NCBI GenBank assembly: GCA_022340515.1
Contig: JAJDNT010000118.1
Span: forward strand, 1 to 46,959
DNA from: Deltaproteobacteria bacterium
GTDB taxonomy: Bacteria > Desulfobacterota > Syntrophobacteria > BM002
DNA: 46,959 bases
Direction: 5' to 3'
Shown: piece by piece, positions 22,038 to 46,959 of the stretch
Layout of the letters: each line of letters begins with the position of its first letter
Position numbering within the stretch: position 1 is the stretch's first letter
Program-made: the position numbers and the translations under genes
The notes under the pieces: generated by a model
Told to the model about the DNA's origin: nothing
The model's input: the letters and a program-made list of their open reading frames with translations, nothing else
The model's database searches: none

Positions 22038-22271
22038 TAAGCCTGCGTTCCTCATGAAACGGTGTTGCGAGACCGCAAAGACGGGCGTGCCTGCCCGCCA
22101 TCGTCCGCCTGAGGCGGACTCAGGCGAGGCGTGCGGGCCACTGAGCACCCGCAGGGTCTCGCACCCGAGGCGTACTTGGAAAGTACGTCGCAGGGTTCGG
22201 GGCCCGAGGATGCTCGGAAGGACGGCCATATTTGTGGTCGCAGTAAGCGTTTCATGGGGAATGCAGGTTTA
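22038..22271. ncRNA. Candidate structured RNA / repeat, copy 1
   Basis: About 234 bp folding as a closed multibranch structure. P1: 22038-22061 with 22248-22271 (24 bp, three G-U). P2: 22071-22079 with 22231-22239. A pairing 22082-22090 with 22146-22152 encloses a REP-like insert containing TCCGCCTGAGGCGGA. P4: 22154-22166 with 22193-22205, enclosing P5: CGTACTT (22171-22177) with AAGTACG (22181-22187). Conserved single-stranded-looking words shared with copy 2 include GGAAGGACGGCCATAT and AGACCGCAAAGA. Lies between dprA and the LysM gene, no ORF. Strand is unproven. Confidence 0.7.
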
Positions 22272-33313: not shown

Positions 33314-34024
33314 ATGAGTCCACCTAGGAAAGCCAAAAGTCAAAAAAAGGTACTGCGCTTCGAGTTGAGCAGACTAGCCCTTGCAGGCTGGTGTTTCGCT
33401 ATTCTCGTGGCCTTGCTTTGGATGTTTGTCCTTGGGGTTTTTGTGGGCAAGGGAATAACTCCTGCCAACATCAATTTAGCTGAAATTAAGAAGAGAATGG
33501 TTGACGAAGGGGTCTGGCCCGGATCTAGTAAAAGTGTGCAGCAGGAAGAATCTGCCCGAACCACTAATACGAAAAGAAAAATCCCCCTCGATGACCTAGA
33601 ATTCTACGAAAAGCTGGCCCAAAAAAAGAAGGCGCGGCTGCAGGAGTCCACCCCGGAAAAAATAGCGGTCAAGAACGAACCAGCTGCTGCCGAGGCTCCA
33701 CCCAAAGCAGTCGCTCCCAAGGCTCAATCCAAGTCAGTCCCCCAGCAAACCGCGGAAGTTCCTAAAAAGGAAAAGCCCTCTGAAGGCAACTTCACCGTGC
33801 AGTTAGCCTCTTTCAAGGATCAAAACAGCGCCAACAAATTTGCTGCCCAATTTAAAGATTTGCAGCCCAAACCAACTGTCAGAACAGTGGATCTGCCCGG
33901 TAAAGGGCGTTGGTATAGGGTGCAAGTTGGACAGCTTTCGAGCCGTGACGAGGCCTCAGCCCTGGCAGATCGCCTTGCCAACAAATATCAACTCAAAGCT
34001 TTCGTCATAAGTCTGGACGGGTAG
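33314..34024 (+). CDS. Membrane protein with C-terminal SPOR domain
   Basis: 236 residues. A basic N-terminus and one transmembrane helix (about 24-45, LALAGWCFAILVALLWMFVLGVFVG) are followed by a long Pro/Ala/Lys-rich linker, and a SPOR domain in the last 80 residues (FTVQLASFKDQNSANKFAAQFKDLQPKPTVRTVDLPGKGRWYRVQVGQLSSRDEASALADRLANK). SPOR domains bind denuded peptidoglycan at the septum, so this is a candidate FtsN/DedD-like division protein. Follows argS by about 110 bp. The second structured repeat starts at its stop codon. Confidence 0.92.
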   Translation: MSPPRKAKSQKKVLRFELSRLALAGWCFAILVALLWMFVLGVFVGKGITPANINLAEIKKRMVDEGVWPGSSKSVQQEESARTTNTKRKIPLDDLEFYEKLAQKKKARLQESTPEKIAVKNEPAAAEAPPKAVAPKAQSKSVPQQTAEVPKKEKPSEGNFTVQLASFKDQNSANKFAAQFKDLQPKPTVRTVDLPGKGRWYRVQVGQLSSRDEASALADRLANKYQLKAFVISLDG

Positions 34025-34026
34025 AG

Positions 34027-34254
34027 CCCGTATATCTCTTGAATTGCTGTTGCCAGACCGCAAAGATGGGCGTGCCGGCCCGCGCCACCACGCCCGCCAT
34101 GCGAGCAAGGAGAGGCGGGCGGGCCAACAGGCACCCGCAGGGTGTTGGTCCCGAGGCGCACCTAAACGGTACGTCGCAGGGACCAAGACCCGAGGACGCC
34201 AGGAAGGACGGCCATATCCGTGGTCGCAGCAGGCGGATTCATGAAATATGCGGG
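34027..34254. ncRNA. Candidate structured RNA / repeat, copy 2
   Basis: Same layout as the copy at 22038-22271. P1: 34027-34045 with 34236-34254 (15 Watson-Crick pairs, two G-U, two mismatches), of different sequence from copy 1. P4: 34140-34152 with 34179-34191, 12 of 13 paired. P5 is weaker, with one mismatch. Shared words AGACCGCAAAGATGGGCGTG, GCACCCGCAGGGT and GGAAGGACGGCCATAT. The REP-like insert in the loop differs. Begins within three bases of the SPOR gene stop. Confidence 0.7.
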
Positions 34255-34296
34255 ATCACGGTCTCAGAAAAAATTGCCATGGTGTTCTAGATTTAC

Positions 34297-45233: not shown

Positions 45234-46577
45234 ATGGCGACCAATAAAGTGATCAGTTTTCCAATAAAGGTTAATGGACCTCATCTAAAAGGTAAGACCT
45301 TACTGATTCCGGAGATGAATCGGATTGCGGCAAATCTTCTTGCTGCAACCTTCAGGGGTTTTGGGGTGCGGGCCAAAGTGATGGAGACCTACAAGGGTAT
45401 GGATTTGGGTAAAGAATACACTTCTGGCAAAGAATGCTATCCTTGTCAGGTAACCATGGGGGATATACTGCATTTTATTGAGAAGGAGAAAGACAGCCTA
45501 GGCGATAGTTTCAATCCGGGGGACTATATTTACTTCATGCCCGAGGCAGAGGGACCATGCCGCTTTGGCATGTACAACAAATACCAACGAATAGTGCTGG
45601 ATTCATTCCCCGGTTTGAGGGAACTGCAAATCATTTCCCCCAGTAACAGTGATGCTTATTCGCTAGGGGATATCCTTGAAGAGAACCAAGAGCAAGATTT
45701 TAGAAAAACCGCATATTTTTCCATGGTGGTGTCTGACGTCCTCGAAAGGCTACTCTGGAAAATCAGACCCTATGAGCGAGAATCAGGGATAACCGATGCT
45801 TTTATCCAAAAATCTGCAGAGTCTCTCGCACATGCCTTCGAACTCTACGGAAGAAGAAAACTTTTTGGCAAGATTATGAATAAGGTGGAAGAAATCGTCA
45901 GAGAGGCTAAAAACTTTGTAGATCCCGCTATCCCCCCCAAACCCTTGATCGGTATTGTTGGCGAGATCTTCTTGCGAATGCATGACCATTCCAATCAAAA
46001 CCTGGTAAAGATCTTGGAGAAGCACGGGGCTGAGGTGGTAAATGGTTCTATTTGCGAATGGGTAAACTACGTAAGCTATGATGGGTTAAGAGAGGCGAAA
46101 AAAGAGTTTCTTTTGAATCTCAAGCAGCTACGTTTGCGGCCAATGACAGGTGCTCTGAAAAATATTTTTGATTTCGGCGGGGACCTCCTCTACAAGGAAT
46201 TTAGACAAAAGAAGGTTTATAGACAGGTTAGAAATCTCGTTGATATTCCAGAAGATCACAAAATATCCCACCTAGAGCACAGTCTACAACAAAGTGACCT
46301 CTTTTCCTTTGATCTTAGTACAGAGGCCTGTCTCAGTATCTCTTCAATAGTGGAATTTGCCAAGGGAGGTTACAACGGCGTGGTAAACGTTTATCCCTTT
46401 ACCTGCATGCCGAGTATGGCTACCTCAGCCATTGTCAAGCCTTTCCTGCGTAAACTGAAGATACCCTATCTGGATGTCCCCTGCGACTCTACTATACAAC
46501 CGGGAAGGGAAGCGACAATCAGGACTTTTATGTATCAAGCCCGCCAACACTTTAACCATTCAATTACAAGGTGTTAG
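45234..46577 (+). CDS. Activase-associated CoA-dehydratase D-component-like protein
   Basis: 447 residues, start ATG three bases after the previous stop, so probably co-translated. Motifs with cysteines: GKECYPCQ (C68, C71) and EGPCRFG (C109), then NVYPFTCMPSM and VPCDSTIQPGREATI near the end, which resemble the cysteine-containing segments of the 2-hydroxyglutaryl-CoA dehydratase D-like family. Some genomes carry this part fused to the DUF2229 activase as one polypeptide of about 1400 residues or more (family knowledge), so this appears to be a split form. Cluster or substrate not shown. Confidence 0.82.
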   Translation: MATNKVISFPIKVNGPHLKGKTLLIPEMNRIAANLLAATFRGFGVRAKVMETYKGMDLGKEYTSGKECYPCQVTMGDILHFIEKEKDSLGDSFNPGDYIYFMPEAEGPCRFGMYNKYQRIVLDSFPGLRELQIISPSNSDAYSLGDILEENQEQDFRKTAYFSMVVSDVLERLLWKIRPYERESGITDAFIQKSAESLAHAFELYGRRKLFGKIMNKVEEIVREAKNFVDPAIPPKPLIGIVGEIFLRMHDHSNQNLVKILEKHGAEVVNGSICEWVNYVSYDGLREAKKEFLLNLKQLRLRPMTGALKNIFDFGGDLLYKEFRQKKVYRQVRNLVDIPEDHKISHLEHSLQQSDLFSFDLSTEACLSISSIVEFAKGGYNGVVNVYPFTCMPSMATSAIVKPFLRKLKIPYLDVPCDSTIQPGREATIRTFMYQARQHFNHSITRC

Positions 46578-46959
46578 GTGTCAGGTGTCAGGTGTCAGGA
46601 AGAAAAAGCAGAAACGCTAAACTTTAATCCTCAATAATTATGCCTGAACACTGAAACCTTTATGACGGTGCAACTTTTTTTGCCTGGTAAACATTTCTTC
46701 ATCCCACCTATGTTATTGATTCAAAATTACTTTCTCAAAATAACTAGAGTCATGTCAACCTTGGTTGCATCCTCCTGAAGATCCTGCCAGTAGAACAGCA
46801 AGCCCTGATAACCAAATTCAGTCTGGTTCCCATTTTTGTCTTATAAAACATAAGCGACTGATATACATCAATTAATTGGCATCGACCAGTTTCCAGCATA
46901 TAACTCTTCTCCGGCCCACCGCCAGGAATTCAGCCCGGGGGTGATTTCTGGAACGCTCT
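46578..46959. repeat. Downstream flank of activase operon, GTGTCAGG direct-repeat copy R
   Basis: Begins with GTGTCAGGTGTCAGGTGTCA words and runs through GCCTGAACACTGAAACCT, GGTGCAACTTTTTTTGCC and CATGTCAACCTTGGTTGCAT (46751-46770), matching 41758-41936 in order. The last 180 bases contain no recognisable gene or promoter. Confidence 0.7.

What the first reader, a model, noticed from the sequence alone, without database searches (positions are those of the whole stretch)
22038..22271. Candidate structured RNA, copy 1, whose fold is supported by comparison with 34027-34254
The two elements are partly identical in sequence (AGACCGCAAAGA, GCACCCGCAGGGT, CCCGAGGCG, GGAAGGACGGCCATAT, GTGGTCGCAG) but the paired arms differ and still pair. 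P1 here is 24 bp with three G-U pairs, of sequence unrelated to P1 of the other copy. In the P4 helix, C-G becomes T-A at its middle pair and A-T becomes T-A at pair 10; P5 shows T-A to C-G. Such compensatory changes argue for a maintained fold. Size and two stand-alone copies are reminiscent of HEARO/omegaRNA-type or repeat-borne RNAs, but no IscB/TnpB gene is present and I cannot claim membership.
Basis: partly seen in the sequence, partly recalled or inferred. Interest (0 to 1): 0.82.

Follow-up and report, generated by a model that had tools for sequence, protein, structure and literature searches.

The report
Mobile repeat carrying rod-shaped RNA fold
The two look-alike stretches are copies of a small jumping DNA element that sits at about 64 places in this genome and has the ends of a known transposon type; unusually, its interior has been kept able to fold as a single strand, on one strand only, into a long rod, which suggests that an RNA copy of it does something.

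Summary
Copy 1 (22039-22270) and copy 2 (34024-34257) belong to one 184-nt family found at about 64 places in this genome, in all 10 genus genomes checked, and patchily in other families of the phylum. It is not in Rfam. It is not a pair of stand-alone RNA genes: it is a MITE. All copies examined lie between genes. Copies end in near-perfect inverted repeats (TAGCCCGGATATTTCATGAAT). Filled and empty sites show insertion at YTAR. Autonomous IS1380-family transposons elsewhere in the phylum carry the same ends. The interior is unusual for a MITE: a rod of helices separated by tandem G.A loops (GA/GCA, GA/GA), conserved across four families whose stem sequences differ. Selection for it is strand-specific: in 141 copies, wobble (G.U) variants outnumber A.C variants 367:100 (25:2 among variants seen in five or more copies), while mis-registered pairs give about 1:1. 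So the + strand acts as a folded single strand, most likely RNA. What the fold does is not shown; I lean towards a role in the element's own spread, because orientation towards genes is random, but that step is inference. HEARO membership is not supported. A new variant of a known kind.

The parts
22039..22270 (+). Copy 1 of the element (folded strand is +), 232 nt = 184-nt family form plus a 48-nt nested palindrome
   Evidence: cmsearch R1 96.9 bits, full length 1-184
22039..22063 (+). P1 left arm / left inverted repeat of copy 1
   Evidence: 24 of 25 pairs form with 22246-22270; 7 compensated against family consensus
22246..22270 (+). P1 right arm / right inverted repeat of copy 1
22069..22070 (+). 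GA side of conserved GA/GCA internal loop 1 (partner GCA 22240-22242)
   Evidence: read from sequence; conserved loop in family folds
22151..22153 (+). GCA side of GA/GCA internal loop 2, flipped (partner GA 22206-22207)
22167..22168 (+). GA side of GA/GCA internal loop 3 (partner GCA 22190-22192), closing the apical GGCGTAC...GTACGTC hairpin
22092..22139 (+). Nested small palindrome inserted in the rod of copy 1 (GCCCGCC...GGCG...GCGGGCC)
   Evidence: absent from 184-nt copies; similar inserts at the same point in L041, L120 and copy 2
34024..34257 (+). Copy 2 of the element; its start overlaps the stop codon of the upstream SPOR-domain gene (33314-34024)
   Evidence: core 34094-34236 87 bits on +; full-length bounds from the shadow match; neighbour Pfam
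34077..34125 (+). Nested palindrome in copy 2, same insertion point as in copy 1
46303..46592 (-). Unoccupied site: the window lacks here an element that is present in the homologous locus L079 (372-555)
   Evidence: joined-flank BLAST and junction comparison

Best explanation
The feature is one copy of a non-autonomous transposable element (MITE), 184 bp in its plain form. Its ~20-bp inverted-repeat ends match those of an IS1380-family transposon clade, whose transposase presumably moves it in trans to YTAR (CTAG/TTAA) sites between genes, with at least TA duplicated. Unlike an ordinary MITE, its interior encodes, on one strand only, a conserved rod: about six helices separated by tandem G.A internal loops and capped by a GGCGTAC/GTACGTC hairpin. 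Shown: multicopy, mobile, IS1380-type ends, a strand-specific fold under selection, and conservation in several families. Inferred: that the folded molecule is RNA rather than single-stranded DNA, and that it serves the element's own propagation (for example, a nascent transcript that stays at its own copy and recruits or protects the transposition machinery) rather than a host function at each site; I put that last step at about one in three.
For: Copies: 64 places in this genome; present in all 10 same-genus genomes and in 3 of 3 other genera of the family, absent from 28 other genomes of the class, present in 17 of 395 genomes sampled across the phylum. Mobility: filled/empty-site pairs with insertion at a single YTAR site; 0 of 140 copies inside predicted genes. 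Mobilizer: L165, L170/L208 and L334 carry IS1380 transposases (NF033539, E = 6.6e-123 for L165) with ends CTAGCCCGGATNATYCAYGA; L336 has a looser version. Fold: 95.6% of cells paired, 20 pairs with double changes, 0/500 shuffles. Strand: G.U 367 against A.C 100; variants in 5 or more copies 25:2; slid-register controls near 1:1; asymmetry absent at unpaired sites; the + strand folds better in 201 of 201 copies of four families, with recurrent GA/GCA and GA/GA loops. Orientation to the upstream gene random, 57:49.
Against: No IS1380 transposase was found in this genome, and the one in the same genus (L173) has no matching ends. The known IS1380 member IS1247 makes 5-bp duplications (PMC3281130), whereas the two 4-mers flanking these elements are identical no more often than chance, so the duplication may be only TA. 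About a third of copies carry nested palindromes, some replacing one strand of a helix, so not every helix is essential. A tree-based count shows G.U excess on terminal as well as internal branches (213:83 and 44:7, p = 0.04), so 'selected only while spreading' is not settled. Within the f25 family alone the counts are even (45:42, little divergence). No transcript data.
Confidence: 0.75

Rival explanations
1. Plain MITE: only the ends matter. The rod is a by-product of an ancient inverted duplication, and arms stay complementary through hairpin-templated correction (quasipalindrome repair) or copying of source copies.
For: Ends, insertion sites and intergenic dispersal are fully MITE-like. 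Nested palindromes that break helices are tolerated. Private variants show no G.U excess (singletons 18 GU, 18 AC).
Against: Templated correction is strand-symmetric and cannot give 25:2 G.U over A.C among common variants with ~1:1 in slid registers, nor conserved unpaired GA/GCA loops shared by families whose stem sequences differ.
Confidence: 0.2
2. Host-side RNA element: each insertion acts in its transcript as a structured 3'-UTR/operon element (stability, processing or protein binding), and copies that fold are favoured where they land.
For: Many copies lie within tens of bases of stop codons. Rare variants lean to G.U when the upstream gene runs in the same direction (26:21 against 13:26, p = 0.05). 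Terminal branches also show a G.U excess.
Against: Orientation to neighbouring genes is random (57:49). Copy 1 is antisense to both flanking genes. Singletons show no G.U excess.
Confidence: 0.25
3. The folded molecule is single-stranded DNA of one strand (a transposition, uptake or replication intermediate), as in IS200/IS605 or REP systems.
For: Tandem sheared G.A loops are also stable in DNA, and G.T is tolerated better than A.C (established knowledge). The fold spans the whole mobile unit.
Against: Ends, inverted repeats and insertion at YTAR sites are those of a DDE cut-and-paste element with an IS1380 transposase; no Y1/HUH transposase is tied to the element; orientation is random.
Confidence: 0.12
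4. HEARO/omegaRNA-type guide RNA of an IscB/TnpB system living as a non-autonomous copy.
For: Size (~184 nt), multicopy, mobile, structured.
Against: No Rfam match in any family form. No IscB/TnpB beside the window copies. True inverted repeats with IS1380 ends, not the end structure of IS200/605-type elements.
Confidence: 0.02

Closest known systems
MITEs of bacterial insertion sequences (e.g. Nezha, MITEAba12, TIMEs)
   Same: Short, multicopy, non-coding, inverted-repeat ends shared with autonomous transposons, intergenic, filled/empty sites
   Different: Interior is conserved and under strand-specific selection for a single-strand fold; MITE cores are normally neutral filler
ERIC / RU-1 and other palindromic intergenic repeats
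   Same: 100-200 nt imperfect palindrome, intergenic, TA-centred insertion, folds as RNA
   Different: No sequence relation tested or found; here the ends tie to IS1380, and the fold has recurring tandem G.A loops with a measured one-strand bias
IS1380-family transposons (Pfam DDE_Tnp_1_4, NF033539)
   Same: Near-identical ~20-bp ends CTAGCCCGGATNATTCAYGA in L165 and L170/L208
   Different: No transposase gene; the rod is not seen in the autonomous copy read here (L165); the published 5-bp duplication of the family member IS1247 is not seen
HEARO / omegaRNA (IscB, TnpB) and IS110 bridge RNAs
   Same: Structured RNA of similar size carried by a mobile element
   Different: No associated nuclease or recombinase of those kinds found, no Rfam match, different ends; no guide segment identified

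Membership tests
MITE | Short, non-coding, many dispersed copies | tested here: met
   184 nt; 64 places in the genome; no conserved open frame
MITE | Terminal inverted repeats shared with an autonomous transposon | tested here: met
   L165, L170/L208, L334 IS1380 elements have the same ends
MITE | Target-site duplication and empty sites | tested here: met
   Filled/empty pairs at YTAR; exact duplication length unresolved, at least TA
IS1380-derived element | IS1380 transposase acts on the ends | not testable with these tools
   Needs a transposition assay; end identity only
IS1380-derived element | Direct repeats of the length published for the family member IS1247 (5 bp) | tested here: not met
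   Flanking 4-mers identical in 29 of 138 against 26.8 expected; IS1247 value from PMC3281130
IS1380-derived element | Autonomous partner in the same genome | tested here: not met
   No NF033539 match in G000, an 87% complete assembly
HEARO / omegaRNA | Match to the HEARO covariance model | tested here: not met
   No gathering-level match and none among listed sub-threshold matches
HEARO / omegaRNA | Next to IscB/TnpB in at least some copies | tested here: inconclusive
   Neighbours of the two window copies are DprA, LysM, SPOR and radical SAM genes; other copies not annotated
Structured non-coding RNA | Covariation beyond shuffles and slid controls | tested here: met
   0/500 shuffles on all five measures
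Structured non-coding RNA | Strand-specific wobble tolerance | tested here: met
   25 GU against 2 AC common variants; not seen within f25 alone
Structured non-coding RNA | A transcript | not testable with these tools
   No RNA-seq available

The most novel reading that the evidence does not exclude
A DDE-type (IS1380) miniature transposon whose movement depends on a structured RNA made from its own + strand: an RNA-assisted cut-and-paste element, selected for the rod fold in source copies and released from selection after insertion.
Probability: 0.2. Interest if true: 0.9.

Novelty: new variant of a known kind. Interest (0 to 1): 0.6.

Why it matters
MITE interiors are usually treated as meaningless filler. 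Here a MITE family keeps a one-strand-only rod with recurring tandem G.A loops across at least four bacterial families, so either the RNA helps the transposon spread or the host uses it. Both can be tested with strand-specific RNA-seq and compensatory mutants, and the family should be added to repeat and RNA libraries so that its hundreds of copies are not taken for independent RNA genes.

Tried and rejected
Rfam membership: only sub-threshold chance hits (RsmZ 16.9 bits; MIR1858 44 bits against a cut-off of 137, both strands, a long-hairpin artefact). Viral origin: the core pattern gives 0 hits in viral contigs, and a looser apical pattern gave two unrelated hits; no match in phage or plasmid collections. 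CsrA/RsmZ-like sponge (GGA motifs): the motif is not kept in other families. Coding: no frame is open in more than 90 of 141 copies. Intrinsic terminator: no T-run after the hairpin. A 4-bp CTAG duplication was my first reading; the flank statistics do not support it. 'Selected only while spreading', first inferred from rare variants, was weakened by the tree count and is now marked as a lean. Literature: no paper in the held library contains the end or core sequences.

Full report
WHAT IS THERE. Copy 1 (22039-22270) and copy 2 (34024-34257) are both real and fold far better than shuffled sequence (z -11.6 and -6.6). A core pattern from them hits seven places in the genome exactly. A covariance model built from 51 relatives (R1, 184 positions, 71 pairs) finds 64 distinct places in the 3.8-Mb, 87%-complete genome. 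The plain form is 184 nt. The two window copies are longer because each carries a nested palindrome of 48-49 nt at the same point. Neither the family nor its distant relatives matches Rfam above a curated threshold.

DISTRIBUTION. All 10 genomes of the same genus and 3 of 3 genomes of other genera in the family carry it, mostly in dozens of copies (two genomes have 6-7 matches); 28 genomes of other families in the same class have none. Across the phylum 17 of 395 sampled genomes have it, in families f25, f31, f42, f100 and singly elsewhere. Named records with it are uncultured Desulfobacterota (bin435, bin63, bin617, BM002, CSMAG, ALJrbin series), plus one Zixiibacteriota chromosome with two matches. 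It is absent from phage, plasmid and viral-contig collections. The patchy spread fits a mobile element.

IT MOVES. Joining the flanks of 140 copies and searching the other loci gave 12 candidate unoccupied sites, several of them clean; one lies in this window at 46303-46592. Insertion is at a single YTAR (CTAG, TTAA, TTAG). Outer bases vary while the inner G/C pair stays, and the flanking 4-mers are identical no more often than chance (29 against 26.8), so the duplicated part may be only TA; a weak inner-outer correlation remains (p = 0.004 and 0.015). No copy lies inside a predicted gene, and orientation towards genes is random.

WHO MOVES IT. In the complete genome G021 two matching ends lie 1.7 kb apart around a 459-aa transposase (locus L165). 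It is an IS1380-family enzyme (NF033539 E = 6.6e-123; Pfam DDE_Tnp_1_4 E = 1.1e-156). A 47%-identical relative in G223 has the same end, and L334 (same class as this genome, 81% identical) and L336 carry similar ends. No partner was found in this genome, and the published 5-bp duplication of IS1247 (PMC3281130) is not seen, so the assignment rests on end identity.

THE FOLD. In 51 copies 95.6% of pair cells are standard pairs, 20 pairs have changes on both sides, and none of 500 shuffles reaches any of the five measures. In 141 copies, departures from Watson-Crick pairs are 367 G.U against 100 A.C. Counting distinct variants, those in five or more copies are 25 G.U to 2 A.C, while slid registers give about equal numbers. 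Unpaired positions show no such asymmetry. A strand-symmetric DNA process cannot do this, so the + strand is selected as a folded single strand. In four families with different stem sequences the + strand folds better in every copy (201 of 201), and the helices are separated by tandem G.A loops: GA/GCA at three places in the window's family, and AGAT/AGAT plus GA/GCA in the others.

WHAT IT MAY DO. Resident copies look partly relaxed: singleton variants are 18 G.U to 18 A.C, and orientation is random. That suggests the fold matters for making or establishing new copies more than for a function at each site. The evidence is not clean. On a tree, terminal branches also show a G.U excess (213:83, against 44:7 on internal branches, p = 0.04). 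Copies with a same-strand upstream gene lean towards G.U among rare variants (p = 0.05). The f25 family alone shows no bias (45:42). I therefore commit to 'IS1380-type MITE carrying a selected one-strand rod, most likely an RNA', and only lean (about one in three) to a role in propagation.

VERDICT. Observation confirmed; structured-RNA reading partly supported; HEARO membership not supported. New variant of a known kind.

Noticed in passing
22092-22139 and 34077-34125; also L041, L120, L010, L014, L024, L083, L101: About a third of copies carry one or more small palindromes (GTCCCGCGG..CCGCGGGA; CCTGTCCTGAGCCTGTCGAAGGA; GGGACTGAGCGGAGC..; TCACGCCAGGGCGTGA; GCCCGCC..GGCGGGC) at fixed points of the rod, sometimes replacing one helix strand. 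They look like other mobile palindromic repeats nesting in this one.
   Followed up: partly
L166 1142-1601 (G223:C102): A 460-bp element with the same ends and a longer, different middle: a second non-autonomous form.
   Followed up: no
L074 (CP070839, Zixiibacteriota bin1014) and L096 (Flavobacteriaceae MAG Ww435): Copies in records labelled as other phyla; horizontal transfer or mis-binning not resolved.
   Followed up: no
L273 (G268:C238): A related rod with different terminal repeats (TAGTGYAGCGTCTCGCAAATA) but a similar GGCGTACT..AGTACGCC apical hairpin, suggesting that rods of this type pair with more than one kind of end.
   Followed up: no
L007 322-505: One copy in this genome ends a few bases before a tRNA gene.
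   Followed up: no
L098 (JAUWKY010000227): A copy sits in the middle of a perfect flanking inverted repeat (TCGCGTGGGGATATT...AATATCCCCACGCGA), as if inserted into a hairpin.
   Followed up: no
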